Positions 7,553 to 29,783 of a stretch of 36,771 bases of DNA are shown here, in pieces. Position numbers and translations under genes: made by a program. The stretch is from a virus. Under the pieces are notes generated by a model. That model did not search any database. It saw only the letters and a list, made by a program, of their open reading frames with translations, and was not told the DNA's origin. The DNA lies in IMG/VR virus record IMGVR_UViG_3300048839_000748, positions 1 through 36,771 of that record; one strand, written 5' to 3'. The stretch's first letter is position 1; the number at the start of each line of letters is the position of its first letter.

Positions 7553-7602
7553 CGGAAGTATGTACATGATCTTGGTCCTTTAGGCTTAGAGGAAAATCAT
7601 CA

Positions 7603-7687
7603 TGCGGGCGACAGGGATCGAACCTGCACGAGCACGCTGCTCACCGGGTTACACACCCGGCGCGTCTCCCAATTCCGCCACACCCGC
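7603..7687 (-). tRNA. Class II tRNA-like gene, tRNA-Leu-type body with abnormal anticodon loop
   Basis: The minus strand folds as a full class II tRNA. The acceptor is GCGGGTG/CGCCCGC, the D-arm GCG/CGC with loop GAATTGGGAGA, the anticodon stem CCGGG/CCCGG, the long variable arm GAGCA/TGCTC, and the T-arm GCAGG/CCTGT with loop TTCGATC. The discriminator is A and there is no encoded CCA. The D-loop and discriminator look like tRNA-Leu. The 7-base anticodon loop is TGTGTAA, so position 33 is G instead of the near-universal U, and the nominal anticodon UGU would be Thr. It may be a decayed or functionally diverged tRNA carried by the mobile element. Confidence 0.7.
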
Positions 7688-7720
7688 ATTAGCAGACTGA
7701 ATGAGAGGCCGATCTTCAAA

Positions 7721-7769
7721 GGCTCCCCGGCCGACGCGCAGAATAGGTTCGTGCCGGGGAGCCTGTTTT
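7721..7769 (+). terminator. Strong stem-loop terminator inside the 653-bp element
   Basis: An 11-bp perfect stem (GGCTCCCCGGC at 7721-7731 with GCCGGGGAGCC at 7753-7763) is followed by TGTTTTA. It reads as a rho-independent terminator on the plus strand. On the minus strand the stem is followed by TTTG, which is weaker. Confidence 0.6.
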
Positions 7770-7774
7770 ACGGG

Positions 7775-7802
7775 TTGATTTTGGTGGGCCTCGGATTACA
7801 AT
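7775..7802 (+). promoter_or_regulatory. Sigma70-like promoter inside the 653-bp element
   Basis: TTGATT (7775-7780) and TACAAT (7797-7802) are separated by 16 bp, close to the consensus. Transcription would start near 7809 and run into the terminator at 7864-7901. Confidence 0.5.
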
Positions 7803-7808
7803 AGGAAA

Positions 7809-7901
7809 ACCTCGGCCGCCATGCCGCATCGCAACTGCTCCTGGTGACTGAGGCGTGAGACTTGGGGCTGCTGGTGCTAGTAACACCACCAGCCCCTTTT
7901 T
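7809..7901 (+). ncRNA. Possible ~93-nt small RNA
   Basis: A promoter-like sequence at 7775-7802 and a terminator at 7864-7901 delimit a short transcript without a sensible ORF. Within it CCTC near 7809 and GAGG near 7851 could pair. It matches no RNA family I can recognise: it lacks the SRP core GGAAGGAAGCA and lacks tmRNA features. The support is only the flanking signals. Confidence 0.3.
7864..7901 (+). terminator. Rho-independent terminator
   Basis: A 13-bp stem with one mismatch (7864-7876 with 7884-7896) and a 7-base loop is followed by TTTTT (7897-7901). It could reduce read-through from the terminase genes into the head operon. Confidence 0.75.
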
Positions 7902-8031
7902 ATTGCGCCATCTTTAACGGTTCATCTGTCATTTCTTTCCTTCGGTATTGCGCCGGGCGTCGGTCCTTTGCTTCACTGGTCACGATCAGGTCTCCGTGCG
8001 AGGCCATCTCGACAAGCACTCCCATTCAAGA

Positions 8032-8154
8032 TCGGGTGACTGGAAGGACGCGGTGAAGAAGTCGCTCCAGAAGAAGCGCCCGGCGGCTGGTTGCCGCCCG
8101 GGAGCAGCCCAAGAAGTCATGAAACTGACTCAGAATAACGTAAGGTGGATTTAG
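8032..8154 (+). pseudogene. Remnant of the short basic passenger ORF
   Basis: The frame reads GDWKDAVKKSLQKKRP near 8035-8085. This parallels VDWKAALKNALQKPKP in the 47-residue ORF at the right end of the large transposon, and the two nucleotide stretches are visibly similar. Upstream similarity is lost and the C-terminus is altered, so I treat it as a truncated or fused copy. It lies at the same place relative to the right inverted repeat in both elements. Confidence 0.5.
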
Positions 8155-8205
8155 CTCGCTGCTGGCTCGCTTCATCAAGCACGTTGCGTAAAGTACATAC
8201 TTCCG

Positions 8206-8213
8206 GGAGTAGT
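8206..8213. repeat. Right 8-bp target-site duplication (GGAGTAGT)
   Basis: Identical to 7545-7552; the pair brackets the 653-bp element. Confidence 0.9.
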
Positions 8214-8223
8214 TATAAAATCT
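8212..8223 (+). promoter_or_regulatory. Shared gap motif GTTATAAAATCT (copy 1)
   Basis: The 12-mer recurs exactly at 16881-16892. Both copies lie directly at the end of a gene and 58-78 nt before a structural module (portal/capsid here, tail tube there). A phage-specific late promoter or RNA-processing site is possible. The mobile element inserted immediately beside this copy and left it intact. Confidence 0.4.
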
Positions 8224-8280
8224 ATTACCTGCCCGACCATGTTCATTGATTTTTGTTCATTAAACAATGAATATTGAGGC

Positions 8281-8490
8281 GTGGCAGAAACTCCATCTGA
8301 AATCGAGACTGCGATTGAGGCCAACGCACAGGGGCCGGAGTCGGCGAGCGGTGACGCGGGAAGTATGCGTCAACACTCGCTCGCCGATCAGATTGCTGCG
8401 GATAAATACCTGGCGGCCAAAGCCGCGTCACGCATTCGGCGGCTGCCGTTTCGCGTGGTGGCGATCAATCCTGGGGGGATGACGCGATGA
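8281..8490 (+). CDS. Small head protein upstream of the portal (gpW-position, 69 aa)
   Basis: It lies between the terminase block and the portal gene, and its TGA overlaps the portal ATG. The C-terminal half, with SLADQIAADKYLAAKAASR and a final PGG segment, resembles short proteins that often precede lambda-type portal genes. The N-terminal half is acidic and low in complexity. GTG 8281 is the likely start, although the GAGG before it is very close; ATG 8365 is an alternative. A role at the head-tail joining region is inferred from position. Confidence 0.6.
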   Translation: MAETPSEIETAIEANAQGPESASGDAGSMRQHSLADQIAADKYLAAKAASRIRRLPFRVVAINPGGMTR

Positions 8491-9947
8491 CTGACGAAGA
8501 CATCGTGATTCTTCCTGGCGAATCGAAGCCGATCTCAAAGGCGAAAAGCCCCGCAAAACTTCGCGCGCGTTACGACGCGGCGCAGACGACCACGGAAAAC
8601 ACGGCTCATTGGTCCGCTGCCGATTATCTTTCGGCGCGATCGAGCAACACGCCGTCGATTCGTCGCACGCTTCGCGCGCGGAGCCGCTATGAGACCGCAA
8701 ACAATGGTTACGCGGCTGGCATCACAGAGACGCTGGCCAATTACGTGATCGGCACCGGCCCGCGACTTCAACTGCTGACGAAAGACCCGCAGATAAATCG
8801 CCGCGTTGAGCAGCTGTTTAGCCAGTGGTCGCGCCGCACGCATTACGCCCGCAAGCTGTGGGTGATGCGTTTTTCTTCCGCTGTTGACGGCGAGAGCTTC
8901 GGCGTTTTTTCGACGAATTACGCATCGCGTGATCCGGTGAAACTGGACCTGAAGGTGATTGAGGCCGACCGTGTTGCGGACCCTCGCGCGGTGTTCAATT
9001 CGCAGCAGCTGAACGACGGCATCTTTTACGACGATTTCGGAAATCCGACGGCGTACACGATTCTGCGGGAGCACCCAGGCGACCTCGGATTCTTGTCTGC
9101 GAATACGGAATACGACCTGGTGCGGGCTGAATTCGTGGTCCATCTTTTCAAGGCGCGTCGTCCTGAGCAGGTGCGCGGTGTTCCTGAGATGACGCCGACC
9201 ATGCAGTTGTTCGCCGATCTTCGCCGTTATTCCGCGTCGGTCTTGGCTGCTGCCGAGACTGCCGCGAATATTTCCGCCATTGGCCGCTCAATTGCCCCGC
9301 CGGACACGACCTCTGAGGGCGCGCCGGTTCCGTGGGAGGAAGTGGACATTCCGCGTCGGTCGATGCTGATGCTTCCCGACGGCTATGACATTACGCAGCT
9401 TCGCGCGGAGCAGCCGACGACGACCTATTCAATGTTCATTGAAGAAAAACTCGGTGAAGCCGGTCGCCCGTTCAGTATGCCGCTTAACATCGCAATGGCG
9501 AAATCGGCGGGATACAACTTTTCGTCGGCAAAACTTGATTTTGCCATGTTCGACAAGGCTATCGGAATCGACCAGTTCAGGGTCGAGGAGGACGTTTGCG
9601 AGCCGACGCTGGAGCAGTGGTTCAATGAGGCGCGGATGATCGCCGGATATCTGCCCGACGGCTTGGATTTTTCCGACGGGCTTCCGCCTCACGAGTGGTT
9701 CTGGGACGGTCAGGAGCAGCTTGATCCGCGAGAGAACGGTTCTCGCGCAACGGCGATTCAGTACGGCATCGACACTATCCCGCGAATCTTTGCGAAGAAA
9801 GGTCTCGATTACGAGGTCGAACAGTCAGCGATGGCCGCGTCGCTCGGCATGTCAGTCGAGGAATATCGCCGTCGTTTGGCGCAAAACATCTTCGCATCGC
9901 AACAGGTTGACGAAGTGACGACAGAGGAGGACGACGACGATGCCTAA
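8487..9947 (+). CDS. Portal protein (lambda type)
   Basis: Forms the dodecameric ring through which DNA enters and leaves the capsid and on which the terminase docks. The sequence matches lambda-family portals: an early ARYDAAQTT and HWSAADYLSARS region, a helical segment with NNGYAAGITETLANYVIGTGP, then IEADRV, IFYDDFGNPTAYTI, and the PEQVRGVPEMTPTM segment with later GYNFSSAKLDFAMFDKAI. The acidic C-terminus (EDDDDA) overlaps the capsid gene start. The 486-aa length is normal. Confidence 0.88.
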   Translation: MTDEDIVILPGESKPISKAKSPAKLRARYDAAQTTTENTAHWSAADYLSARSSNTPSIRRTLRARSRYETANNGYAAGITETLANYVIGTGPRLQLLTKDPQINRRVEQLFSQWSRRTHYARKLWVMRFSSAVDGESFGVFSTNYASRDPVKLDLKVIEADRVADPRAVFNSQQLNDGIFYDDFGNPTAYTILREHPGDLGFLSANTEYDLVRAEFVVHLFKARRPEQVRGVPEMTPTMQLFADLRRYSASVLAAAETAANISAIGRSIAPPDTTSEGAPVPWEEVDIPRRSMLMLPDGYDITQLRAEQPTTTYSMFIEEKLGEAGRPFSMPLNIAMAKSAGYNFSSAKLDFAMFDKAIGIDQFRVEEDVCEPTLEQWFNEARMIAGYLPDGLDFSDGLPPHEWFWDGQEQLDPRENGSRATAIQYGIDTIPRIFAKKGLDYEVEQSAMAASLGMSVEEYRRRLAQNIFASQQVDEVTTEEDDDDA

Positions 9948-12000
9948 GACGCTGTACCTCAAGAACGACTCCGAAGGCGCGGTGACGTTGAACGCTGCGG
10001 CTGAAGCGGACGGCGAGAAGCTGCCGACGTTTTCGATGGTCGCCTATACCGGCGGTGCGATGCGGCTTGGCTGGCCGTCGCTTCCCGTGGTGGTCGATCT
10101 GGCGGGGATGACATTCACGAGCAAGTCGCGTCCGATCTTCCGCGACCACGACTCATCGCAGATCGTTGGGCACACGACCAGCATCGAGATCACCGGCAAT
10201 TCGATTGTCGTCAAAGGGATTGTCTCCGGCGGAAACGAGGCCGCGAACGAAGTCTTAACTTCTGCTGGCAACGGATTCCCGTGGCAGGCTTCAATCGGTG
10301 CGGAGCCGACGACTCCGCTGACGCTGATCGCCAAGGACGAGAAGACGACTGTAAACGGAACAGATTTTGTCGGCCCGATTTACGTGGCCAAGAAAACGGT
10401 GTTGAAGGAAATCAGCTTTGTCGCGCTTGGTGCGGACGACAACACAACGGCAAGAGTTGCGGCGACAGCCGCTTCTCAAAACACGAGGAGCATTTCGATG
10501 AATTTCGCAGAATGGTTGAAGGCGAAGGGTTTCGATCCTGAGACGCTGACTGATGGTCAGCGAGCGAGCTTGGAGGCGATGTACGAGAAGGAGAACGGCG
10601 ACAACGCGACGGATTCTGACATTGAATCCGTGATCGCACCCGCCAAACAGCGTGACGAGCGGCGAAAGAAAATCGTCGCCATCACCCGCTCGCTTCTCGA
10701 AGACTACCCTGAGCACATTCAGGTGATCGAGGCCCTCGGTCGCCAGGCTCAGCAGGGTGAGTGCTGGGAGGCTGATCGGTTCGAGCTTGCGGCTCGTCGC
10801 GCGATCCGTCCTGAAGTGAACGCGCGTTCTCGCTCGCGTGAGGACGACGGCGTAACCGAAACGGTGATCGAAGCGGCGGTCTGCATGGCCGGCGGTCTGA
10901 GCGGGATCGGCAAGCAATTCAGCGACCAGACGCTTGAGGCCGCGTCAAAGCGGTGGCGTCACGGGCTGGGACTTGGCGAGCTTTTCTCGCTTTTCGCCCG
11001 CCGAAACGGCCATGACGTTCTCGGCACACGGAACGTCGCATCACTGCTTCGCGCCGCGTTTGCGGAGCCTAAGCAGCCGGTGCTGACCGCTGCGGTGAGC
11101 ACGCTGAGTCTGCCGGGGATTCTCGGCAACGTGGCCAACAAGTTCCTTCGCGCCGGATTCGACGCGGTGGAATCGTCGTGGCGTCAGATTGCCGCGATCC
11201 GTGCGGTGCGAGATTTCCGCGCCGTGTCGAGCTACGCGCTGACCGGCGACTTCAAATATCAGCAGGTCGCGCCCGGCGGTGAGCTTAAGCACGCCGACGT
11301 CGGCGAGGAATCGTACAGCAATCAGGTGAACACTTACGGTCGGATGTTCGGTATCGACCGGCAGGCGATCATCAACGATGACCTCGGTGCGTTGACGGAC
11401 GTTCCGCGAAAACTCGGTCGTGGCAGTGCGTTGAGCCTCAACGAGTTGTTCTGGACGAAGTTCCTCGACAACGCATCGTTCTTCACCTCTGGCCGAAACA
11501 ACTATCTGTCCGGCGTGACGGTCGGGACCAACGATTCGCGGCTGAATCTTGAGGGGTTGACTCGTGCGGAGAATGCGTTCTTCGCGCAGACTGATCCTGA
11601 CGGCAATCCACTCGGATCGCAGCCGAAGATTCTTCTGGTGCCGGTGTCGCTCGGATCGACTGCGGCTCAACTGATGAGCAGCATGGAAATCCGCGACACC
11701 ACGTCGAGCACCAAGTACGGCGTGGCCAATCCGTTCGCTGGCAAGTTCACCGTGGTTAGATCCGCGTACCTCAACAGCTCCACGATCAGCGGCGCAAGTG
11801 CTGCGGCGTGGTATCTGCTGGCCGACCCGATTGACGTTCCGGTGATCGAGGTCGCGTTCCTCAACGGACAGGACTACCCGACGGTCGAAAGCGGCGAGGC
11901 CGACTTCAGCACGCTGGGCATCCAGTTCCGCGGCTATCACGATGTCGGCGTCGAGAAACAGGAATACCGAGGCGGCGTCAAGAGCAAGGGCGAAGCCTAA
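9940..12000 (+). CDS. Prohead protease fused to major capsid protein (Mu gpT-like)
   Basis: The first ~180 residues are a prohead (U35-like) serine protease. His70 lies in RDHDSS, and Ser118 in WQASIGAEP is the likely nucleophile. A charged helical region (about 187-310) looks like a scaffold or delta domain. The remainder is a gpT-like/HK97-fold capsid subunit ending in FLNGQDYPTVESGEADF and FRGYHDVGVEKQEYRGG. GAGGAGG (9924-9930) is the ribosome site. An internal ATG at 10498 (Met187) has its own GAGGAG 7 nt upstream, which could yield a separate scaffold-capsid product. A fused arrangement is known in phages; cleavage would separate the parts during maturation. Confidence 0.85.
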   Translation: MPKTLYLKNDSEGAVTLNAAAEADGEKLPTFSMVAYTGGAMRLGWPSLPVVVDLAGMTFTSKSRPIFRDHDSSQIVGHTTSIEITGNSIVVKGIVSGGNEAANEVLTSAGNGFPWQASIGAEPTTPLTLIAKDEKTTVNGTDFVGPIYVAKKTVLKEISFVALGADDNTTARVAATAASQNTRSISMNFAEWLKAKGFDPETLTDGQRASLEAMYEKENGDNATDSDIESVIAPAKQRDERRKKIVAITRSLLEDYPEHIQVIEALGRQAQQGECWEADRFELAARRAIRPEVNARSRSREDDGVTETVIEAAVCMAGGLSGIGKQFSDQTLEAASKRWRHGLGLGELFSLFARRNGHDVLGTRNVASLLRAAFAEPKQPVLTAAVSTLSLPGILGNVANKFLRAGFDAVESSWRQIAAIRAVRDFRAVSSYALTGDFKYQQVAPGGELKHADVGEESYSNQVNTYGRMFGIDRQAIINDDLGALTDVPRKLGRGSALSLNELFWTKFLDNASFFTSGRNNYLSGVTVGTNDSRLNLEGLTRAENAFFAQTDPDGNPLGSQPKILLVPVSLGSTAAQLMSSMEIRDTTSSTKYGVANPFAGKFTVVRSAYLNSSTISGASAAAWYLLADPIDVPVIEVAFLNGQDYPTVESGEADFSTLGIQFRGYHDVGVEKQEYRGGVKSKGEA

Positions 12001-12030
12001 TTTCAACCAATCCAACAAGGAGACACAGCA

Positions 12031-12393
12031 ATGGCAGTAACGTATGCACTTTTCCGAAGCGGCTCGCCGGTGATGGCCGACTACACGCCGGGTTCGGCGG
12101 TGACGGCTGGCGACGTGGTGATCGTGTCCGATCTGGCGTTGATCGCGCATCTGGACATTGCGGCCAACGCTCTTGGCTCGCTGGCCACCGGCGGCGGCAT
12201 CTATTCGATGCCCAAGGCGTCCGGGTCTATCACTGGCGGCGTGCGACTGTTCTGGGACGCGACGAATCACGTCGTCACCACGGCTCGCGGCACGAACAAG
12301 ATCATTGGCTTTGCCGGCCCGGACGGGGCGGCAAGTGCTGATACGACCGTGCTCGTCATTCATGACCCAGGCATGGACACCGCCGGAACCTGA
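12031..12393 (+). CDS. Capsid decoration protein (DUF2190-like)
   Basis: A 120-residue protein directly after the capsid gene with AAGGAG 8 nt before ATG. The pattern PGSAVTAGDVV, then HLDIAANALGSLATGGG, then a strand ending VRLFWDATNHVVTT matches small head-decoration or cement proteins of the DUF2190 type, which bind the mature shell and stabilise it. Confidence 0.8.
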   Translation: MAVTYALFRSGSPVMADYTPGSAVTAGDVVIVSDLALIAHLDIAANALGSLATGGGIYSMPKASGSITGGVRLFWDATNHVVTTARGTNKIIGFAGPDGAASADTTVLVIHDPGMDTAGT

Positions 12394-12396
12394 CGC

Positions 12397-12774
12397 ATGT
12401 CTGACATGCTCGGCGATGCTCTGGCGTGGCTTGGCGGAAAGCGCCATGACTACATGAGCGTTTCAGTCACCTACCGACGCGGATACCAGTCCGCGTCGGT
12501 TTTTGCTACACGTGGTCGCACGGCGATTGACGTTGGCGAAGTGGAGGGCATGAAGTCCAGAGCGTTCGAGACTGATTTTATTTTTCGCGCTTCCGACTTG
12601 GTTTTCGATGGCTCACGGTTCGATCCGCAGCGTGGTGATAGGATCATCGAGGGCGACAACACCTTCGAGGTGATGCCGATCAACGATGAACTGTGGCGGT
12701 GGTGCGATCCGCAGCAGGTCGATATCAGGGTGCACGTGAAGCTGGTGGACGACGACAATGACTCCTCTTACTGA
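12397..12774 (+). CDS. Head-tail connector/head completion protein (125 aa)
   Basis: Placed fourth after the portal, where head-closure proteins are found. It is beta-rich, with SVTYRRGYQSASVFATRG, then RAFETDFIFRASDLVFDG and a PQRGDRI turn, similar to small connector barrels. The start lies 3 nt after the decoration gene and has no clear ribosome site. It overlaps the next gene by 17 nt. Confidence 0.65.
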   Translation: MSDMLGDALAWLGGKRHDYMSVSVTYRRGYQSASVFATRGRTAIDVGEVEGMKSRAFETDFIFRASDLVFDGSRFDPQRGDRIIEGDNTFEVMPINDELWRWCDPQQVDIRVHVKLVDDDNDSSY

Positions 12775-13207
12775 AGCTGCCGACGCCGTGACGAGTGCGA
12801 TCAACGCGCAGAATTGGGGATCGCATGTTTTCACGGCGCGTCGCAAGTGGCTTCCGGTCTGGATTCTCAAAGACATAAAAAATGTTCAAGTGATCGTTGC
12901 TCCGGTCAGTGATAGTACGATCAGAGAGACTCGCCACACGCACACGCACAACATCAGGGTTGACATTGGCGTGCTCAGGAAGTTGAGTCGAGCCGACCTT
13001 GAGACTGAGGAGATTGACCCGCTGGCGGACCTTGCCGATTCGATTGCCGAATACTTTCGCACCGGCGGTGACGGCGGACGCTCGCCGCGAGTCGGCTCGT
13101 TCGCCGTGGTGTCGGTGTTGCATGATCCGATTGTGGCCAGAGAGCATCTTGACAGTCATTCACAGTTTACGAGCGTGATTCAACTGTCGCTCACGAAGGT
13201 TTCGTAA
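12758..13207 (+). CDS. Tail completion/terminator-like protein (149 aa)
   Basis: It follows the connector and precedes the neck protein in the usual siphovirus order. An N-terminal helix (LTEAADAVTSAINAQ) leads into mixed alpha/beta sequence with a VDIGVLRKLS strand-helix, typical of tail-terminator (gpU-like) folds. The assignment rests on order and general shape. The TAATG junction links it to the next gene. Confidence 0.6.
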   Translation: MTPLTEAADAVTSAINAQNWGSHVFTARRKWLPVWILKDIKNVQVIVAPVSDSTIRETRHTHTHNIRVDIGVLRKLSRADLETEEIDPLADLADSIAEYFRTGGDGGRSPRVGSFAVVSVLHDPIVAREHLDSHSQFTSVIQLSLTKVS

Positions 13208-13650
13208 TGGTCGGGTTCAGCCTGAAACTCAAAAACTTCAAGGATGCGTTTTTCGACCGGCAGGCGGTGGTAAGCGCGATAGACAAGGTTTCGATTCGCG
13301 TACTGTCGAGGTTCGGAGCTTTCGTTCGTCGGTCGGCGAAGGGTCGTATCCGGCGTCGCAAAAACCCTTCGCTCCCCGGCCAGAGTCCGAGTTCTCATTC
13401 GGGTCTGCTGCGGGACAACATTTATTTTGCGATGGACCTGGGCAATCGTTCCGTGGTGATCGGACCCGCGAAACTTGGCGGCGGTACCGACGCTCCGCAC
13501 GTCCTGGAGTACGGCGGTGATACGGTGATTTCCGGCGGTCGTTCGAGAGGAAAGCGAATTCACATCGAGGCGAGGCCTTACATGCAGCCCGCCTTCGAGG
13601 AGAATCTGTCGAAACTTCCCGATATCTGGCGTGAAGCTGTAATACGGTGA
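13207..13650 (+). CDS. Neck/tail-completion protein (HK97 gp10-like)
   Basis: The central segment with SLPGQSPSSHSGLLRDNIYF, and VVIGPAKL with HVLEYGG, is characteristic of phage neck or minor tail proteins in which a Pro-Gly loop precedes a Ser-rich turn. The basic N-terminus is followed by a long helix. The C-terminal RPYMQPAFEENL is also typical. It is the last connector gene before the inserted sugar-modification cassette. Confidence 0.7.
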   Translation: MVGFSLKLKNFKDAFFDRQAVVSAIDKVSIRVLSRFGAFVRRSAKGRIRRRKNPSLPGQSPSSHSGLLRDNIYFAMDLGNRSVVIGPAKLGGGTDAPHVLEYGGDTVISGGRSRGKRIHIEARPYMQPAFEENLSKLPDIWREAVIR

Positions 13651-14426
13651 GTGTCCATCATTCCATCATCATCGCGCATCGCGCGAGACAGGTGTACTTA
13701 AGCGCGTGCCTGAGGTCCATCGCGTGGTCGGCTGCGGTTTGCTCGATTGACGATTTCGAGGTGATCGTATGCAACGGGGGGCGCGACGTGTCGGCAGTCG
13801 ATGCGAAGTGGTGCAAGGTCGTTTACGACGACTCGCCCATGCCGATCTTCAATAAGTCTCGGCTTCTCAATCGCGGCATAGACGAGGCGCGAGGCGAAGT
13901 GCTGACATTTCTGGACGCCGACGCGATTGTCGGGCCAAGATGGATTTTAGGCGCGGTCAACGCTGACTGGAGCGAGATTCACCGACTGTGCTACCGTGTC
14001 CGGTACGTTTCGGAGGCGGAAAGCCGCGACTACCTTGCTGGTCGCAGCGACCTAGATTTTGCGATGTATGACGACTACCAGCTGGCTTATGAAGCGTATG
14101 GCACGCCAAACCAAGGGCGAGGCGGTACAGGGCAGCCGTGGGGCAATTCGCAATTCAGCATTCATCGTGATCGGCTTGGCGATTTCCGCTATGACGAAAA
14201 GTATATTGGCAGAGGATTCGAGGACCTTGACATTCTGAATCGGATGGCGAGATTGTGGGGGAAGGACTATCGCGCAAGAATCACGACGCGAGGCGTTGAG
14301 TCTATGTACCACCTCAAGCATGGATACGCGACCGACTGGCGGAACGGCGGGTGCTCATCGGCCAACGCGAGAAGATTTATCGGGGTTGCGGTAAGTCACC
14401 ATGAAAACGCCGACCGAAAAAAGTAA
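13647..14426 (+). CDS. GT-A glycosyltransferase (family 2-like)
   Basis: Transfers a sugar from a nucleotide-sugar donor. The N-terminal strand SIIIAHRARQVYLSACLRSI and the metal-binding FLDADA (Asp90, Asp92) are GT-A hallmarks. A later RGFEDLDILNRM is the acceptor-side motif of the galactosyltransferase-like C-terminal domain. The start is GTG 13647, in a GTGA overlap with the neck gene. Acceptor and sugar are unknown. Its place within the structural operon suggests that virion proteins or phage-made glycans are modified late in infection. Confidence 0.82.
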   Translation: MSVHHSIIIAHRARQVYLSACLRSIAWSAAVCSIDDFEVIVCNGGRDVSAVDAKWCKVVYDDSPMPIFNKSRLLNRGIDEARGEVLTFLDADAIVGPRWILGAVNADWSEIHRLCYRVRYVSEAESRDYLAGRSDLDFAMYDDYQLAYEAYGTPNQGRGGTGQPWGNSQFSIHRDRLGDFRYDEKYIGRGFEDLDILNRMARLWGKDYRARITTRGVESMYHLKHGYATDWRNGGCSSANARRFIGVAVSHHENADRKK

Positions 14427-16887: not shown

Positions 16888-16892
16888 AATCT
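16881..16892 (+). promoter_or_regulatory. Shared gap motif GTTATAAAATCT (copy 2)
   Basis: An exact copy of 8212-8223. Here it overlaps the stop codon of the last glycosyltransferase and precedes the tail-tube gene by 78 nt. The gap also has the palindrome AAGTTTA-T-TAAACTT at about 16931-16945 and TAGGAG before the ATG, so it is a candidate late promoter region for the tail module. Confidence 0.4.
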
Positions 16893-16969
16893 GTAATCAA
16901 CTAAACAATTCGAGAGATGCCGTCGGTCAAAAGTTTATTAAACTTGAAATAGTTTAGGAGACCCCTCAC

Positions 16970-22930: not shown

Positions 22931-23096
22931 CTCGAATCGTAAGATCAGTCCACCCGTAATTAAGCAAAATCCGCAACGCATGGCGCAGTTGCCGGATGTC
23001 CAGCTTTCGATTCGCGCCGCCAATATGCGCCCGCGCCAGTCGGCTCGACCAGTGCGGCGGATCGTGGTCCCACACTCGGACTGTATAGGTGGTCAT
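22905..23096 (-). CDS. Hypothetical protein (63 aa)
   Basis: Last gene of the leftward recombination operon. ATG 23096 is preceded by GGAGG with good spacing and overlaps the upstream TGA. Basic with several Trp; no known motif. Confidence 0.6.
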   Translation of the reverse strand: MTTYTVRVWDHDPPHWSSRLARAHIGGANRKLDIRQLRHALRILLNYGWTDLTIRVNRERKDD

Positions 23097-23434
23097 TCGC
23101 CGACCTCCACTTCCGCGATGATCTTTTTTCCGTGCCGATAAAAGCTCACCAACCGGACCCTGATCGTCACGGGGCGGTCAACGCCGTCAGGATCAATCAT
23201 CGTAATGTCGCTGCGGAACTGGAGCGGGATCGGGTCATAGACCGCGTAGGCTTCGGTCACGTCAAGTTCAACGCTCATTTCCTTGACCCAGTACGACTCG
23301 CGGTCCCAACGCACGGCGAGCCTGCCGAGCATTTCCGCGATGTCGTGTTCCGAGTGGTTTGCTGTGATTTTCAGCGGCGCGTAATAGTCGCGTCGATATT
23401 CACCCTGCCCGATTGATACCAGAGGTGCGGTCAT
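23093..23434 (-). CDS. Hypothetical protein (113 aa)
   Basis: ATG 23434 is chosen for its AAGGAG site 8 nt upstream. The open frame extends further but the longer N-terminus reads like a shadow. Mixed alpha/beta sequence with WDRESYWVKEMSVELDVTE and a basic C-terminal strand (RVRLVSFYRHGKKIIAEVEV). No family recognised. It lies among replication/recombination genes. Confidence 0.6.
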   Translation of the reverse strand: MTAPLVSIGQGEYRRDYYAPLKITANHSEHDIAEMLGRLAVRWDRESYWVKEMSVELDVTEAYAVYDPIPLQFRSDITMIDPDGVDRPVTIRVRLVSFYRHGKKIIAEVEVGE

Positions 23435-23648
23435 ATTGAGTCTCCTTTCGTTGCGGTGAGTTCCACCATTGCATGACCAGTTTCGTGTCGCGGATCGGAG
23501 CGGTCGAAGCAACCAGTGCTTTGGCGAACCGCAGCGTGGTGTTCCGCTCCGCAGCGAACATTTTGTCGTAATAGACGTGGAAGGAATAGAGCCTGAACTC
23601 CGCGACAATTTCTTCCATTAGATCGGGATTGCTGATGTTGCCATCCAT
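23400..23648 (-). CDS. Hypothetical protein (82 aa)
   Basis: ATG 23648 follows GAGGAGG. It is a helical protein with EEIVAEFRLYSFHVYYDKMF. It overlaps both neighbours by about 30 nt. No known motif. Confidence 0.55.
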   Translation of the reverse strand: MDGNISNPDLMEEIVAEFRLYSFHVYYDKMFAAERNTTLRFAKALVASTAPIRDTKLVMQWWNSPQRKETQYDRTSGINRAG

Positions 23649-24352
23649 TTCCAGTCCTCCTCTGTCATTTCGGATTCTTGACGACCGGCGAGACGACTTT
23701 CCAGCCGACGCCACCATTCTGCGGAGATTGCCTCCTCACTCTGACCTGGCATCAGGCGGCGGAACGCCTCCCATGCGGTTTCTTTCGTGGCCGCGGGTTT
23801 CTGCGGCGGTGCAGGTGGAGTTGCTGCGGCTGCGGTTGGGGGCGGTGGTGGAGTATGGGCCACCGCCCCCTTGCCGCTGGCAGCCGCACCTGCCAGAGCA
23901 CGCAGGCTGCTTCCGAGACGATTCTGCAATTCTCGGAGAGAATCTTTGTCGGCCTTCCGCGTCATCCCGCCTTCGTCATTCAGGCTGGCGATCCACTTGA
24001 CCGTCATCCTCTTTTTTCCTTCATACTCCTCGGTGGCAACCGTAATTTTCACGCATGTAGCGCTCCAGTCAGTGTCCTGGAGCTTGCAAAGATCAACGCC
24101 GTCCCATCCGAGAGCCTTTCGCAGCTGCTCGATTGTCGTGTCGTTGGCGGTGTGGTCACGCTTCTCCAGCATGTGGTATCCGGTGATTTCCGCGTCGTAG
24201 TCTCGATAGTCGCACCATTCCCCGCCATGCCAGAGTTGTGACAGAGAATATCTGACAACGAACATGGCCAGTTGGTTTTTCTCGGTGAAATTGACGCCCC
24301 ACTCCTTCGGGTAGGCGCGATACGTTCCGTCACGATCCGGCAGATTTGCCAT
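23618..24352 (-). CDS. Possible ssDNA-binding/DUF669-like protein (244 aa)
   Basis: It sits directly after the Sak4-like ATPase gene, where single-strand-binding or annealing partners are usually encoded. Residues ~1-150 form a beta-rich region containing VKITVATEEYEGKKRMTVKW, which resembles the last strands of the DUF669/OB-like partner proteins. Residues ~165-190 are a Pro/Ala-rich flexible linker. The C-terminus is acidic and Trp-rich, ending MTEEDWKWMATSAIPI, which is like the acidic tips of SSB proteins. Identification is by context and partial pattern. Confidence 0.55.
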   Translation of the reverse strand: MANLPDRDGTYRAYPKEWGVNFTEKNQLAMFVVRYSLSQLWHGGEWCDYRDYDAEITGYHMLEKRDHTANDTTIEQLRKALGWDGVDLCKLQDTDWSATCVKITVATEEYEGKKRMTVKWIASLNDEGGMTRKADKDSLRELQNRLGSSLRALAGAAASGKGAVAHTPPPPPTAAAATPPAPPQKPAATKETAWEAFRRLMPGQSEEAISAEWWRRLESRLAGRQESEMTEEDWKWMATSAIPI

Positions 24353-25173
24353 TACTTGGTCTCCTTATTGTTGATGGAAAAAAGTTTATCCCACAGTTCC
24401 GAAGAATCTTTGGGGAATGCGATTGCGTCCGCAAGCGTCCTGCTCTTGGCAACGTGAGTCGGCATCTCGGTCGGGAAGATGGTGCGAGTCCCGCACCCCT
24501 TCGCCTTGCCGTCGGTCGTCACAATGTCGTAGCCGACAAAAAACATATGGTCTGTCCACTCGCGGACGCGGTGACGGATTGACGCCTTGCCGGATGCCGG
24601 AGATTGCAGCCGCGGCTCGTAACGAATCCAGTCGTCACCGCTGGGGTTCGGCACGGTCGCCGTGCAATCGTGACAGATCAGCACGACGTTTCGCCCCTGT
24701 TTGACGTGTCGATCCAGTTCCGCCAGCAGGCCGACGAACGTGTCGTAAACGTACTGGTAGCCCTTGCCGTATCCGTAGCCTTCAATGTTTTTGACGTGGC
24801 TTCCCTTGTCGTTCGGGATCGTCTCCAGTGTGTAGGGAATCGCCAGTTCTTCGGCGCGAGTGGCCGAGTCGATCACGATGGTCTTAACGCCATCCCACAG
24901 TTGCGGCGTTCGCAACGCCGCAAGCAGAAGCGACCAGGACCACTCAGCGTCGTTGGACAAGCCGACGCGATCCGTGTCGATGTTGCAGGTCCCGCTTTCG
25001 AGGTCGATGAACTTCGGAGCGGGTGCGGACGCGGCAAGCGATGATTTGCCGATGCCGCCTGGACCATAGATCACGATGCGGTGAGCATGTGCCGTGACGC
25101 CGGTCGAGGAGACGAACTCCGCGTTCGGTCTGGATGGTGGAAGTTTCGCTGGCGGTCTTGGTGCGGCGGTCAT
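24352..25173 (-). CDS. Sak4-like RecA-fold ATPase (AAA_24 family)
   Basis: Walker A is GPGGIGKSS with Lys43, and the Walker B strand TIVID ends in Asp102. The following ICHD and GYGYGKGYQYVYDTF segments match phage AAA_24 proteins. Family members such as Sak4 load on ssDNA and promote strand annealing in phage recombination. It lies with a PD-(D/E)XK nuclease and a putative ssDNA-binding partner, forming a complete recombination set. The ATG overlaps the TGA of the preceding small frame. Confidence 0.8.
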   Translation of the reverse strand: MTAAPRPPAKLPPSRPNAEFVSSTGVTAHAHRIVIYGPGGIGKSSLAASAPAPKFIDLESGTCNIDTDRVGLSNDAEWSWSLLLAALRTPQLWDGVKTIVIDSATRAEELAIPYTLETIPNDKGSHVKNIEGYGYGKGYQYVYDTFVGLLAELDRHVKQGRNVVLICHDCTATVPNPSGDDWIRYEPRLQSPASGKASIRHRVREWTDHMFFVGYDIVTTDGKAKGCGTRTIFPTEMPTHVAKSRTLADAIAFPKDSSELWDKLFSINNKETK

Positions 25174-25414
25174 TGATTGACCCTTTCGGTTGGGGGTTGC
25201 GGTAGATGTTGCACGATACGATCAGGTCGTTCGTCCGTTGCCAACCTGGGTGGCTGTATCCAGGAAGCGGCGGTGGGCCATTTTCTCGCCGCGGAACGAT
25301 TGGCGTATCGTCGAATCTCCACGACTCGCGCCTCTGCTCCAGCGGCCTCCGTTTTCGTCCGCATGTCGCACAGAACTGTGAACAGTCGAAACTACGTGTT
25401 GATTGCTGATTCAT
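25170..25414 (-). CDS. Small ORF region with conflicting frames (possible frameshift)
   Basis: The best start is ATG 25414: it overlaps the upstream TGA and has GGGAG 9 nt upstream. That frame reads CSQFCATCGRKRRP, a CxxC pair, then a Pro-rich segment, but it meets no stop until 24944, far inside the ATPase gene. The best stop, TGA 25170 overlapping the ATPase ATG, is in the frame one base back, which alone would start at 25364 without a ribosome site. Together they suggest one ~80-aa protein with a sequencing error, mutation or -1 shift, perhaps at the run of five C near 25190. Function unknown. Confidence 0.45.
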
Positions 25415-25650
25415 GGCCTGTAGCTCCCGTCTCCGCTGTTCAGTGCGGCGTCAACCGACCTCTTGAACGCCATCGCCCCATCCAGCGAGGAAATAAGTTC
25501 GTCTCTGGAACGCCGAAGTGCATCGATCTGCGCTACTAGGTCAACCAGCATGGTCATCTCAATCGTGGCCGTTTCTGTGCCATTGGCCATCCGATCAACG
25601 GCGGACTGCCGCAGATAGCTCCACTCGCCATCAGTCATGATGTCGTTCAT
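25411..25650 (-). CDS. Hypothetical helical protein (79 aa)
   Basis: Overlaps its neighbours by ATGA at both ends. Mostly alpha-helical, with a heptad-like stretch TMLVDLVAQIDALRRSRDEL. No known domain. Confidence 0.6.
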   Translation of the reverse strand: MNDIMTDGEWSYLRQSAVDRMANGTETATIEMTMLVDLVAQIDALRRSRDELISSLDGAMAFKRSVDAALNSGDGSYRP

Positions 25651-26081
25651 GGCTTCACCTTCCCCTCGTCAAACCGGTGAAACCCGTGCGTCCCGTCGGC
25701 CAGCCGCTCGTCGCGCTGATCAACGCAGCCGATTATCCAGTCCAGCCGGTCTCGTAGGGCGCGATGAAACCGACCCGACTCGCTGCCGCTGTCGAAGTGG
25801 ATCGCGTTGAGCGACTCCAGTTGCTCCCGCGCCCAACACACCAGGTCCGCGAAGTGCGGCAACAGTGCGATCGCAACGGCATCTCGCCCGCTGGAGGCGG
25901 TCATATCAAACACCTCCTCGCCGTCGTCATCCTCCTCAGTCATGCCGATGTTGACGGTTGCCAGCGGCCCGACCCACGCGCCGCGCGTGTCCGGGTCCGG
26001 CCGGCAAACGTCGATGGTGTTTTCGCCAACGTCAACGATCATTCTCCACTGCTGGCCTGCAAGGTCTTTCAACGTCTTCAT
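25647..26081 (-). CDS. Hypothetical acidic protein (144 aa)
   Basis: TAGGAG lies upstream of ATG 26081. The protein starts with a beta-rich half ending TEEDDDGEEVFDM and continues with helices containing ALLPHFADLVCWAREQLE. No family recognised. It lies 9 nt after the nuclease gene in the same leftward operon. Confidence 0.6.
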   Translation of the reverse strand: MKTLKDLAGQQWRMIVDVGENTIDVCRPDPDTRGAWVGPLATVNIGMTEEDDDGEEVFDMTASSGRDAVAIALLPHFADLVCWAREQLESLNAIHFDSGSESGRFHRALRDRLDWIIGCVDQRDERLADGTHGFHRFDEGKVKP

Positions 26082-26090
26082 GGTTTTCTC

Positions 26091-27065
26091 CTATCTGTTA
26101 ACTGGCCGTTTCAGTTTGGCGTCCGCTCCGGGTTCTAATTCCTGATGGACATTCGTCACCTTGACGAACCCATCAGGAATCTGGTCAGTAGCGTTAACTC
26201 CGTTGCAACATAGCGCAAAATACGGACACTTGAACGGGTGGAGACACGAGTTCGTGTTTCGGTACCACCGGCCCGTGCGCTGGCATTCCCGCAGCAATTG
26301 CTGCTGCTGCCACAGTTCGGCAAGAAACTCATCGAGGTCGGATTCGAGCCTTGGGATTTCGCGTCGCGCAAAATAAAAATCCGGTCGTTCGGTCAAGTCT
26401 AACGCAAGCCTGTCGCCGAATTGTGCGATGGTTTCCCTGACGCCGCGAATGAGTTTCGGACGGATCGACGGCTTGCGCACCACGTCGTACAGGACGGTCG
26501 TGACATCGTGCCCCATCACTCTGGCTGCGAGCATGTACCCGCTGATTTGCGTGTCGAGCCGGAGCCTCATCCAGTAATCGTCGTCGATGCTCGATGTGGT
26601 CTTGTGTTCGATGATGGCCAGTCGCCCGTCGGGCAGTTTGGCGATTTTGTCGATCTTGCCGGCGAACCTGAAGTTTGGCGTCACGCCGCCGGTTTCCGGG
26701 TTCTTGATTGGCAAAATGAACGCCTGTTCGGTGGCGACAATCTCGACGTTCTCCCGTCCCCACCGAAGGTGATAGCCGACGATCAATCGCGCGACAATCT
26801 CGCGCTCGATCATCCATTCGTCAACGTCTTCTTCGCTCGCACACCACTGCGGGACAACCTCGTAGCCTGCGACCGCGCGAGATGCAGACTCGACAGGATC
26901 GACGCCTTGTGCCAGCAGGTCGATGCCGAGGTGAAAAGCTGCGCCCATCCTGAGCGGCTGTGAATCGCGGTTGGGGCGAATGCCAAGCTCGTACGCGAAA
27001 TAATGCCTCCTCAAACACGACTTGGCGGAACTCATCCTCGAATGTGTTAATAGATTTTGTTGCAT
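26091..27065 (-). CDS. PD-(D/E)XK nuclease with Fe-S cysteines (Cas4/RecB-type exonuclease)
   Basis: Asp139 in GKID and Glu153/Lys155 in IIEHKTT form the nuclease core. Cys17 in SAKSC together with CLHPFKCPYFALC near the C-terminus gives the one-plus-three cysteine pattern that binds a 4Fe-4S cluster in Cas4 and AddB-like nucleases. It probably resects DNA ends for the Sak4-like annealing system. ATG 27065 is used; the frame is open further upstream but that part crosses the inverted repeat of the mobile element and was created by the insertion. It is the first gene of the leftward operon. Confidence 0.78.
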   Translation of the reverse strand: MQQNLLTHSRMSSAKSCLRRHYFAYELGIRPNRDSQPLRMGAAFHLGIDLLAQGVDPVESASRAVAGYEVVPQWCASEEDVDEWMIEREIVARLIVGYHLRWGRENVEIVATEQAFILPIKNPETGGVTPNFRFAGKIDKIAKLPDGRLAIIEHKTTSSIDDDYWMRLRLDTQISGYMLAARVMGHDVTTVLYDVVRKPSIRPKLIRGVRETIAQFGDRLALDLTERPDFYFARREIPRLESDLDEFLAELWQQQQLLRECQRTGRWYRNTNSCLHPFKCPYFALCCNGVNATDQIPDGFVKVTNVHQELEPGADAKLKRPVNR

Positions 27066-27182
27066 GGCCGACGACCTTATGGACTTTTTATCGAGTGTCA
27101 ACGGCGTATTTGTTGAAAAAAAATATTTAAAATAAAAATAACCATTTACGCGATAAACAATAAGGTGCGGAAAATTATTTTT
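27066..27182. promoter_or_regulatory. AT-rich leader of the leftward recombination operon, cut by the transposon
   Basis: The 117 bp between the nuclease start and the transposon include TTGACA on the minus strand (near 27095) and an A-rich block. Its other half now lies beyond the transposon at 29784-29835, next to the rightward HTH gene. Before the insertion this was a divergent control region of about 160 bp. Confidence 0.5.
27175..27182. repeat. Left 8-bp target-site duplication (TTATTTTT)
   Basis: Identical to 29784-29791, bracketing the 2,601-bp element. Confidence 0.88.
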
Positions 27183-27211
27183 CGGAAGTATGTATTTATT
27201 GAAAATAACCC

Positions 27212-27239
27212 TTGACTTCCGATTTTCAGTATGTATCAT
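27212..27239 (+). promoter_or_regulatory. Transposase promoter overlapping sub-terminal end-like repeats
   Basis: TTGACT (27212-27217) and TATCAT (27234-27239) are 16 bp apart. Between and across them are ACTTCCG (inverted end core) and AGTATGTAT (direct end core), so transposase binding could repress its own promoter. AAAGGA precedes the ATG at 27266. Confidence 0.45.
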
Positions 27240-27265
27240 AATATAAAGATTGGAAAGGAAAATTT

Positions 27266-28225
27266 ATGGCCACACACCAAGTGAAAGTCGGCGAACAGAA
27301 AGACGAGATCGTGCGAGTTATGCCACTAGTGTGTGGCGATGAAAGCGCGGCGGTAGAACTACTTGAAGAATTACGATGGGGCAATAATCCTGCTTGCCCG
27401 ACGTGCGGAAGCACCAATGTGTATAGCATAACTGGCCGTGATGGGAAGCGAGAAAAGAACTACCGATGGCGATGCCGTGATTGTAAAAGGTCTGGGTTAT
27501 TCTCGGTGCGTACCGGAACCGTCATGGAGCAAACGAGAATTCCTCTGCGATATTGGTGCTGGGCGTTCTGGCATCTTTGCTCTAGCAAGAAGGGTATGAG
27601 CGCTAAGCAGATTCAACGTCAAACCGGATTGTCCTATAAGTCGGCATTGTTTCTCCTCCACAGGGTGCGATTTGCGATGGCCGATATGGAAGGTGTGAAG
27701 CTTTCCGGCACCATTGAGGTAGATGAGACTTACGTGGGCGGAAAGCCTCGTCATAAAGGGAATAACAAGCGTGGCCGCGGCACAAAGAAAACTCCCGTCT
27801 TCGGCATGGTCGAGCGCAATGGGCGAGTGAAAACGCAAGTTGTAGCTGATGTGACTGGGGCGACGCTTAAGGGCGCAATTCGCGAAGTGGCCGATAATCA
27901 ATCTCGAATCATGACCGATGAGAATCGCGCGTACAGCGGCATCGGTGCAGAGTTTGCGGGCGGTCACAAGTTTGTAACTCACAGTGCAATGCAGTATGTC
28001 AATGGTGACGCGCATACAAATACTATTGAAGGCGTATTCAGCCTAATTAAGCGAGGCATGTACGGCATCTATCACAACGTGAGCAAGCGACACCTTCACC
28101 GTTATCTTGCCGAGTACGATTTCCGCTGGAATAATCGTAAAGTGAGTGACGGAGAACGTACGGTTGCTGCGATTCGAGGCGCGGAAGGCAAGCGATTAAT
28201 GTACCGTGAGCCGTCGTCAGTATGA
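27266..28225 (+). CDS. IS1595-family (ISXO2-like) transposase
   Basis: Catalyses cut-and-paste or copy movement of the surrounding element. An N-terminal zinc ribbon (CPTCGS and CRDCKR) is followed by a helix-turn-helix-like region (GMSAKQIQRQTGLSYKSAL). The DDE-type core has Asp153 in EVDETYVGG, Asp218 in MTDENRAY, and Glu255 in HTNTIEG, with the family C-terminal motif YDFRWNNRK. The 319-aa length is normal. Codons are more A/T-rich than in the phage genes, consistent with separate origin. Confidence 0.92.
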   Translation: MATHQVKVGEQKDEIVRVMPLVCGDESAAVELLEELRWGNNPACPTCGSTNVYSITGRDGKREKNYRWRCRDCKRSGLFSVRTGTVMEQTRIPLRYWCWAFWHLCSSKKGMSAKQIQRQTGLSYKSALFLLHRVRFAMADMEGVKLSGTIEVDETYVGGKPRHKGNNKRGRGTKKTPVFGMVERNGRVKTQVVADVTGATLKGAIREVADNQSRIMTDENRAYSGIGAEFAGGHKFVTHSAMQYVNGDAHTNTIEGVFSLIKRGMYGIYHNVSKRHLHRYLAEYDFRWNNRKVSDGERTVAAIRGAEGKRLMYREPSSV

Positions 28226-28278
28226 CGGTCAAAGAAAATACCGACTTTCCTGGATGATTGATCGCAAGCGTAAGAAAC

Positions 28279-29091
28279 ATGGCAAAGCGAACAATCAAAA
28301 TACGGCTCGGCGAGAAGGGAAACCATCTCGAGATTAGCACGCTAATTACCGTGCTTCAGGATACTGTTGGTATTTTACGCGGAATAGATAAAGCAATCAC
28401 TGGGGAACGATCGCCCGCCCTGCATTGGTTCATTCGTCGAATAGAAATGAAAAGTCCCCTTGAAGCGATCCTAGAAGCCGAAGTTGTAAACGATGGCGTC
28501 GTCGCGCCAGAAGTAGTTCGCCCCTTTATGCGCGGCCTGAAGGCTATGGAGAAAACTTCTGCGCCCCCTCGGTACTTCGGAGATCACGAGTTGACTCGTA
28601 CCAAGCGCATCGTTGATCTGCAACACAACGGTGTTCAGTTTGTCGAGTTCACCTCTGATCGCGATAAGCCGATCCGCCCCACGACACGAGTATCAGAGCA
28701 TATTCAATCCTTGCTCGGCCCGGCCCCAACCCGACCATACGAGCAGTTTGCTGAGATTGAAGGAACGCTTGAAGACGTATCGCTTCATCCAGATATTCCA
28801 CAGTTTGCTATCTACGACCCGCTTACCTATCAGCCGGTGGAGTGCTCTTTTGATTCACAAGACATTGACACAATCACGAATCTGATGAAACGAAAAGCGA
28901 GAGTATTTGTAACGGGAGTTGCCAAGTTCAATGCACGACACCATCCGGTATCTATTTGCGTTGAAAAGATTGAAGAACTTCCAGATCAAAAAGACTTGCC
29001 GCAGATCGGCCAGCTTCGGAAGGCTGGGTTGAACCTCACGAACGGGCGTGATCCGGTGGACGTTATTCGAGGCCTGCGAAATGGCAGATGA
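28279..29091 (+). CDS. Transposon passenger protein, probable antitoxin partner (270 aa)
   Basis: ATG 28279 is preferred over TTG 28258. It overlaps the PIN gene by 11 nt, the usual tight coupling of toxin-antitoxin pairs. The C-terminal half looks like a small beta-barrel (EGTLEDVSLHPDIPQFAIYD, then ARVFVTGVAKFNARHHPV). I know of hypothetical proteins of this kind next to PIN genes, but I do not recognise a named antitoxin family, and it is long for an antitoxin. Its role as partner is inferred from position. Confidence 0.6.
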   Translation: MAKRTIKIRLGEKGNHLEISTLITVLQDTVGILRGIDKAITGERSPALHWFIRRIEMKSPLEAILEAEVVNDGVVAPEVVRPFMRGLKAMEKTSAPPRYFGDHELTRTKRIVDLQHNGVQFVEFTSDRDKPIRPTTRVSEHIQSLLGPAPTRPYEQFAEIEGTLEDVSLHPDIPQFAIYDPLTYQPVECSFDSQDIDTITNLMKRKARVFVTGVAKFNARHHPVSICVEKIEELPDQKDLPQIGQLRKAGLNLTNGRDPVDVIRGLRNGR

Positions 29092-29614
29092 ATACAATGT
29101 CGCGGTGTGGGACGCTTGTGTGCTTATTAGTGCAATTGACCAAGCAAGCCCAAGGTGGCCTGCCATTGAACCGTGGCTGCGCGATGCTGAACGCGGTGAG
29201 TTTCAAATCGTGGTTCCAGAAACAGTAGTAGCAGAACTCCGATATTTGCCGGTCGCTACAGAAGAAGGCGTGCCTCAGGAAAGGCAAGACGATTTGATCT
29301 CGAAGTTTCTGCTTAACCCATACATCGTGCGGCGTTCGGTTCACCGTGGCATATCTGAGTTGGCGGCAACTATTGGTAGAAAGCATAAAAGCGTCAAGCG
29401 GGTTGGCGACGCAATCGTATTGGCCACCGCGCTATTCTGGCAAGTTCCCGTGGTTCATACCTATGACGGCGATGGTAAGAAGAATGGGTTACTCAACTTG
29501 GATTGTGTACTAGGCGACAAGACTAAATTACGTATCATGACGCCCGACTACGGTGCCAACACACTGTTCGGAACACCCAATAATGAAGAAGCCAAGAAGA
29601 AAAAAAGGGCCTAA
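29081..29614 (+). CDS. PIN-domain ribonuclease-like protein (177 aa)
   Basis: PIN domains cut RNA and often act as toxins. The acidic residues are in order: Asp11 in VWDACVLIS, Glu52 in VVAELRYLP, Asp110 in VGDAIVLATAL, and Asp129 in HTYDGDGK, so the active site looks complete. The C-terminus is Lys-rich. It is the third gene of the transposon and overlaps its neighbours on both sides. The likely arrangement is a toxin-antitoxin module carried by the transposon, which could stabilise the element in a phage or host genome. Confidence 0.8.
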   Translation: MADEYNVAVWDACVLISAIDQASPRWPAIEPWLRDAERGEFQIVVPETVVAELRYLPVATEEGVPQERQDDLISKFLLNPYIVRRSVHRGISELAATIGRKHKSVKRVGDAIVLATALFWQVPVVHTYDGDGKKNGLLNLDCVLGDKTKLRIMTPDYGANTLFGTPNNEEAKKKKRA

Positions 29615-29726
29615 ACCAGAAGTGCTCAAACTTAAAACACTGGTTGACTGGAAAGCGGCGCTAAAGAACGCACTCCAGAAACCCAAGCCCACAGACGGCT
29701 GGCCAAAAGTCAAGCTGGAAAAGTGA
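29583..29726 (+). CDS. Short basic passenger ORF (47 aa)
   Basis: ATG 29583 overlaps the end of the PIN gene. The product is Lys/Arg/Pro-rich with VDWKAALKNALQKPKP and a GWP turn near the end. A relative is recognisable at the right end of the 653-bp element. It may be a third member of the toxin-antitoxin module or an accessory of the transposon; no known family. Confidence 0.6.
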   Translation: MKKPRRKKGPKPEVLKLKTLVDWKAALKNALQKPKPTDGWPKVKLEK

Positions 29727-29783
29727 ATACGCTCCTCACCCCCAAGCCCGCCAATAAGTCATTTCAATAAGTACATACTTCCG

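What the first reader, a model, noticed from the sequence alone, without database searches (positions are those of the whole stretch)
7553..29783. Two mobile elements with the same ends in one phage genome: an autonomous 2.6-kb element and a 653-bp relative
Seen directly: both elements end in CGGAAGTATGTA inverted repeats, and each is flanked by its own perfect 8-bp duplication (TTATTTTT and GGAGTAGT). Only the large one has a transposase of the IS1595 family, whose known duplication length is 8 bp. A phage hosting both a helper element and a non-autonomous partner is unusual and would allow the small one to move within the phage and into hosts.
Basis: partly seen in the sequence, partly recalled or inferred. 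Interest (0 to 1): 0.85.

Follow-up and report, generated by a model that had tools for sequence, protein, structure and literature searches.

The report
Phage transposons carrying misfit transfer-RNA genes
Two related jumping DNA elements really do sit in this phage genome, and the small one, which cannot move by itself, carries a transfer-RNA gene with a mismatched decoding loop; relatives in other phages repeatedly carry similar leucine-type transfer RNAs that would read a proline codon, so these transposons may spread translation-altering RNAs.

Summary
The window holds two elements with CGGAAGTATGTA ends, each flanked by its own exact 8-bp duplication. The 2,601-bp one encodes an IS1595-family transposase plus an unknown gene, a PIN-domain gene and a 47-aa peptide. 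The 653-bp one has no transposase. The same ends, also with exact 8-bp duplications, bound at least eight other elements in viral contigs, so the element family is real. IS1595 elements in phage contigs are not rare. The small element carries an intact Leu-type (class II) tRNA cloverleaf with the anomalous anticodon loop UGUGUAA (UGU, G33). Seven different Leu-body tRNAs with a proline UGG anticodon lie inside, or within about 0.4 kb of, related IS1595 elements; three are inside elements with exact duplications. Over eight cloverleaves all 160 base-pair cells pair and 17 of 20 pairs show two-sided changes. The window transposase falls in a 100/100-supported clade in which four of its five sampled relatives have such a tRNA. 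Best reading: an autonomous IS1595 element with toxin-antitoxin-like cargo, and a non-autonomous derivative of a tRNA-carrying relative that it could mobilise. Cross-mobilisation and what the tRNAs do are inferred, not shown.

The parts
7545..7552 (.). left 8-bp target duplication GGAGTAGT of the small element (overlaps the stop codon of the upstream zinc-ribbon-like ORF)
   Evidence: sequence
7553..8205 (.). 653-bp non-autonomous element
   Evidence: 13-bp perfect inverted repeats plus exact 8-bp duplication; identical in an independent contig
7553..7565 (+). left terminal inverted repeat CGGAAGTATGTAC
7603..7687 (-). class II (Leu-body) tRNA gene, A73, no encoded CCA, anticodon loop UGUGUAA (UGU, G33); ARAGORN names it tRNA-Thr from the anticodon alone
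   Evidence: ARAGORN, Rfam tRNA 45.1 bits, E 3.5e-8; nearest references are tRNA-Leu; all 20 cloverleaf pairs intact
7720..7764 (+). 12-bp perfect hairpin (AGGCTCCCCGGC / GCCGGGGAGCCT), terminator-like
   Evidence: I2; not tested functionally
8034..8090 (+). decayed remnant similar to orf4 ('DWK..LQKK.P..G') of the large element
   Evidence: blastn 61 columns, 72% identity, E 3.5e-5
8193..8205 (-). right terminal inverted repeat
8206..8213 (.). right 8-bp target duplication GGAGTAGT
27175..27182 (.). left 8-bp target duplication TTATTTTT of the large element
27183..29783 (.). 2,601-bp autonomous IS1595-family element
   Evidence: inverted repeats, duplication and transposase
27183..27204 (+). 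left terminal inverted repeat (22 bp, 95% complementary)
27266..28225 (+). IS1595-family transposase (319 aa; zinc ribbon and DDE domain)
   Evidence: PF12762 2.7e-42, PF12760 2.3e-13; NF033547 1.9e-61
28258..29091 (+). orf2, unknown 277-aa partner of the PIN gene; possible OB-fold in its C-terminal half
   Evidence: homologue at the same place in the Methylobacterium pMOC1 element (22%, 8e-9), in L165 and in L169; fold match weak
29081..29614 (+). PIN-domain (VapC-like) protein
   Evidence: PF01850 6e-9
29583..29726 (+). orf4, 47-aa '..DWKAALKNALQKPKPTDGWPK..' peptide, also present in most elements of this clade
29762..29783 (-). right terminal inverted repeat
29784..29791 (.). right 8-bp target duplication TTATTTTT

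Best explanation
Both features are IS1595-family transposable elements inserted independently into a phage genome. The large one is autonomous: transposase plus an orf2/PIN toxin-antitoxin-like pair plus a small peptide gene. The small one is a non-autonomous derivative of a different, tRNA-carrying member of the same clade: it keeps the terminal repeats, a Leu-body tRNA gene and a decayed end of the small peptide gene, and has lost the transposase. Shown: boundaries, duplications, transposase family, an intact tRNA cloverleaf, relatives with the same ends, and Leu-body tRNAs with a UGG (Pro) anticodon recurring in related elements. Inferred: the transposase binds the shared CGGAAGTATGTA ends and can move the small element in trans. 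Inferred: the tRNA cargo was kept because it is made and charged (probably with leucine) and reads non-Leu codons (CCA in the UGG relatives), acting as a missense tRNA. In the window copy the loop has G33 and UGU, so the tRNA may have changed codon (ACA) or be losing function.
For: Ends and duplications. Transposase family. Other elements with exact CGGAAGTATGTA ends and exact 8-bp duplications: L039, L044, L082, L086, L117, L138 and L146; L139 has one mismatch in one end and L145 has CGGGAGTATGTA. Non-autonomous members move: L044 and L082 share 781 bp at 97.6% but sit at different targets with different duplications, AACGCGAG and CAAAGACT. tRNA. Leu(UGG) tRNAs: in L082, L086 and L145 inside elements with exact duplications; in L148 between exact repeats; beside transposases in L161 and L155; 80 bp from an element end in L060. 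Body nearest to tRNA-Leu in every case compared (L060 was not in that comparison). 160/160 cells paired, 17/20 pairs covary, 0/500 shuffles reach it. Transposase tree: W, L086, L145, L146, L148, L161 form a clade at 100/100. Small-peptide ORF in most members.
Against: No empty site or second insertion of the window's own elements was found; no reads were available. The window tRNA loop (UGUGUAA) was found in no other tRNA: of the 21 viral stretches matching that D-arm and loop pattern, only the near-identical contig gave a tRNA at the match. The large element itself, L146 and most IS1595 elements outside the clade carry no such tRNA. Ends of L155 and L161 were not delimited, L148 lacks matching duplications, L060 shows one end only, and ARAGORN does not call the L060 and L155 tRNAs, whose variable arms are long. 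L082's tRNA has C1-G72/A73, which from general knowledge is a bacterial Pro identity set, so not every copy need be charged with Leu; L161 has U73.
Confidence: 0.75

Rival explanations
1. The tRNA in the small element is an accidental capture of neighbouring host or phage tRNA DNA in a MITE-like deletion derivative, and has no function.
For: The window's loop is aberrant (G33, UGU) and unique; the small element also has a frameshifted remnant of the peptide gene; positions of tRNAs within the elements differ.
Against: Accidental capture does not predict that seven different Leu bodies share one non-Leu anticodon (UGG), with all cloverleaf stems kept by compensatory changes, nor the concentration in one transposase clade.
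Confidence: 0.25
2. The tRNAs are decoys or protected substrates for the tRNA-cleaving (PIN/VapC-type) toxins carried by the same element family, an RNA part of a toxin-antitoxin or counter-defence system rather than decoding tRNAs.
For: PIN genes in the window's large element and in L138, Roseomonas and Methylobacterium elements; XRE-M78 protein in L145; Panacea antitoxin in L148. The review PMC7609411 reports that non-translating allo-tRNAs were hypothesised to belong to transposons or toxin-antitoxin systems.
Against: No delimited element holds both a PIN gene and a Leu(UGG) tRNA; the toxin-antitoxin-like genes vary while the UGG anticodon is constant.
Confidence: 0.15
3. The tRNAs recode CCA as Leu inside the element's own genes, so that expression depends on carrying the tRNA.
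For: Would explain linkage and the constant anticodon.
Against: CCA codons do not occupy conserved Leu positions in transposases of tRNA-carrying elements, and CCA is used in relatives without the tRNA.
Confidence: 0.04

Closest known systems
IS1595 family with passenger genes (tIS; MTnSag1/tISSag10, tISCpe8; Siguier et al. 2009, cited in PMC5704250)
   Same: DDE transposase with zinc ribbon, short terminal inverted repeats, 8-bp target duplications, passenger genes
   Different: Here the cargo is orf2/PIN, or, in the small element and several relatives, a tRNA gene; the known cargo cited is antibiotic resistance. I could not read the 2009 family paper or search ISfinder.
IS1595 elements of Roseomonas p1318-1 (L032) and Methylobacterium pMOC1 (L030/L034)
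   Same: Same gene order: transposase, unknown gene, PIN/VapC, small ORF; exact 8-bp duplication in L032
   Different: Transposase about 42% identical, different outer end bases (GGGGATTATGTA in L032), no tRNA found
allo-tRNAs (Mukai et al. 2017, reviewed in PMC7609411)
   Same: Long-variable-arm tRNAs with anticodons that do not match the body; one UAU group overlaps a transposon-related ORF and was hypothesised to be linked to transposons or toxin-antitoxin systems
   Different: Those have Ser-type identity and 8/4 or 9/3 acceptor/T stems; these have Leu-type bodies with ordinary 7/5 stems, mostly UGG anticodons, and several lie in elements with mapped ends
tRNA-ProX dual-identity tRNAs of Streptomyces (PMC10365949, PMC11415595)
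   Same: Body of one amino acid with the anticodon of another; shown to mistranslate in E. coli; also tolerate a non-U33 base
   Different: Pro body with Ala/Asn/Thr anticodons, next to a ProRSx gene; here a Leu body with a Pro anticodon and no synthetase gene recognised in the elements

Membership tests
IS1595 family (large element) | IS1595-type DDE transposase with zinc-ribbon N-terminus | tested here: met
   PF12762, PF12760, NF033547 above cut-offs
IS1595 family (large element) | terminal inverted repeats and 8-bp target duplication | tested here: met
   8 bp stated for family members in PMC5704250
IS1595 family (large element) | demonstrated transposition | not testable with these tools
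   no reads or empty site
non-autonomous (MITE/tIS-like) IS1595 element (small element) | same ends and duplication length as an autonomous member, no transposase | tested here: met
non-autonomous (MITE/tIS-like) IS1595 element (small element) | mobilised in trans by a family transposase | not testable with these tools
   only indirect: L044 and L082 relatives at different sites
bacterial tRNA, Leu type (cargo of the small element) | complete cloverleaf with long variable arm, Leu-like D arm, A73 | tested here: met
bacterial tRNA, Leu type (cargo of the small element) | Leu anticodon and U33 | tested here: not met
   loop UGUGUAA, anticodon UGU, G33
allo-tRNA | 8/4 or 9/3 acceptor/T-stem arrangement | tested here: not met
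   7/5 arrangement fits all eight sequences
VapBC-type toxin-antitoxin | PIN toxin next to an antitoxin that neutralises it | tested here: inconclusive
   PIN domain present; orf2 has no Pfam, NCBIfam or PADLOC match, only a weak OB-fold resemblance

The most novel reading that the evidence does not exclude
A clade of IS1595-family transposons in phages carries dual-identity tRNA genes, leucine-accepting tRNAs with a proline UGG anticodon, as a selected cargo that changes decoding in the host; the window's small element is a non-autonomous vehicle of that cargo, moved by a helper in the same phage.
Probability: 0.4. Interest if true: 0.85.

Novelty: new variant of a known kind. Interest (0 to 1): 0.64.

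Why it matters
Transposons are known to carry resistance genes; here they recurrently carry tRNA genes whose body and anticodon disagree, on phages that could deliver them. If the tRNAs are active, mobile DNA would be spreading programmed mistranslation. It would also give mapped, transposon-borne cases for the earlier guess that odd tRNAs in soil metagenomes belong to transposons or toxin-antitoxin systems, and the claim can be tested with standard reporters.

Tried and rejected
Direct relatives of the large element by single-sequence peptide patterns: none close. The end pattern CGGAAGTATGTAYTTATTG gave one chance hit inside a coding sequence of a Bacteroides-like contig. ORF2 search gave one probable chance match. 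Nucleotide search of the small element in phages and plasmids found only ordinary tRNA-Leu genes and short stretches. Phage relatives with 49% identical terminase (L022-L024) have no element ends and carry other cargo between terminase and portal where both genes are in view; they are too distant to show an empty site. The UGUGUAA anticodon loop recurs in no other viral tRNA found. CCA recoding inside the transposase: rejected. The L207/L208 tRNA(UAU) lies outside the element delimited in L207. Bacterial genomes could not be surveyed: the one genome scan found only Helicobacter/Campylobacter relatives, and the genome search draws no relatives for a virus record. ISfinder was not available.
Full report
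Observation. The small element is 653 bp with 13-bp perfect ends and GGAGTAGT on both sides; the large one is 2,601 bp with 22-bp ends at 95% and TTATTTTT on both sides. Among 20 exact 12-mer inverted pairs at 300-4000 bp, only these two have matching 8-bp flanks. A second contig from another IMG/VR sample is identical over 8,504 bp and includes the small element. Insertion sites are tolerant: the small one abuts the stop codon of a zinc-ribbon-like ORF (7270-7551) between terminase and portal genes; the large one sits in an AT-rich gap between divergent genes.

Large element. The transposase is IS1595-family by Pfam and NCBIfam. It is followed by orf2 (277 aa), a PIN protein and a 47-aa peptide. 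Roseomonas and Methylobacterium plasmids hold the same order of transposase, unknown gene, PIN/VapC and small ORF; the Roseomonas element has an exact 8-bp duplication. orf2 matches no library family; its model (pLDDT 74) resembles OB-fold proteins only weakly, best E 0.008, which is a lead and no more.

Small element. It has no transposase. ARAGORN and Rfam find a tRNA at 7603-7687 on the minus strand. ARAGORN names it Thr from the anticodon, but it is class II with a Leu-type D arm and A73, and its nearest references are tRNA-Leu genes. Its anticodon loop is UGUGUAA, that is UGU with G33 instead of U33. By inspection this is two substitutions from UUUGGAA, a loop of the UGG type seen in relatives; that derivation is a guess. 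A 61-bp stretch resembles the end of the large element's 47-aa gene at 72%. The small element is therefore better seen as derived from a tRNA-carrying relative than as a deletion of the neighbouring copy.

The family. One pattern scan (CGGAAGTATGTACWT) in viral contigs found elements with the same ends and exact 8-bp duplications in L039, L044, L082, L086 and L117; further ones are L138 and L139 and L146, with L145 having CGGGAGTATGTA. L039, L044 and L082 have no intact transposase among their listed ORFs. L044 and L082 share 781 bp at 97.6% but have different targets and duplications, so non-autonomous members of this family have moved. An IS1595 transposase profile gave 80 viral loci, about 40 with inverted repeats and an exact duplication (near-identical contigs included). 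IS1595 elements in phage contigs are thus not rare, and one contig (G004) has two complete members and an end of a third.

tRNA cargo. Leu-body tRNAs with a UGG (Pro) anticodon were found in L082, L086 and L145 inside elements with exact duplications, in L148 between exact repeats without matching duplications, next to the transposase in L155 and L161, and 80 bp from an element end in L060. Those in L155 and L060 were found with the covariance model R1 and read by eye; ARAGORN does not call them. Across these seven and the window's tRNA, all 160 base-pair cells form standard pairs and 17 of 20 pairs show two-sided changes; none of 500 shuffles reaches this and slid controls give 40-47% pairing. 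In a transposase tree the window's protein lies in a clade with 100/100 support together with L086, L145, L146, L148 and L161; all of these but L146 have a Leu(UGG) tRNA in or beside the element. The loci were chosen for a transposase or an element end, so how common such tRNAs are elsewhere was not measured. L148 also has a Ser-like body with a CGC anticodon, and L140 a Leu-like body with UUA, 0.7 kb from an element end.

How it may work. Shown: structure, family, boundaries and recurrence. From established knowledge: E. coli LeuRS does not read the anticodon, so a Leu body with UGG should be charged with leucine and insert it at CCA. Natural dual-identity tRNAs that mistranslate are known from Streptomyces (PMC10365949, PMC11415595), and these also have a non-U33 base, so G33 in the window copy does not by itself prove inactivity. 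Inferred: the cargo alters decoding, perhaps as an addictive or stress-related trait alongside the toxin-antitoxin-like genes that these elements also carry (PIN; XRE-M78 in L145; Panacea in L148). The idea that the transposase itself needs Leu at CCA was tested and not supported.

Comparison and novelty. IS1595 elements with passenger genes and 8-bp repeats are known (PMC5704250). Odd tRNAs linked to transposons were hinted at for allo-tRNA(UAU) (PMC7609411), but allo-tRNAs are described as Ser-type with 8/4 or 9/3 stems. In the papers I could search I found no report of Leu-type UGG tRNAs as transposon cargo; most subscription papers and ISfinder were out of reach. I rate this a new variant of a known kind. 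The two-elements-in-one-phage observation alone would score about 0.3; the recurrent tRNA cargo raises it.

Noticed in passing
L207:2221-2308 and L208:1842-1929: Class II tRNA with UAU (Ile) anticodon in viral contigs that also carry an IS1595 transposase; resembles the soil allo-tRNA(UAU) group, but in L207 it lies outside the delimited element.
   Followed up: partly
L140:2154-2239 (G004 contig): Leu-body tRNA with UUA anticodon, which would read the UAA stop codon, 0.73 kb from a CGGAAGTATGTA element end; the other end of that element was not found.
   Followed up: partly
L148:7267-7356: Ser-type tRNA body with CGC (Ala) anticodon between the same ends as a Leu(UGG) tRNA and a Panacea-domain antitoxin.
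   Followed up: partly
G002 contig (L141, L142): The 2,219-bp element has one flank identical to L082 and an unrelated flank at the contig end, as if a second insertion site exists in that sample.
   Followed up: partly
window 36327-36734 (-): Leucine-rich-repeat-like ORF ('DAPNAEYV..GC.SL' repeats) at the contig end; similar DNA at both contig ends.
   Followed up: no
L153:1-10906: Phage with a large tRNA array that contains an IS1595-type element inserted among the tRNA genes.
   Followed up: no
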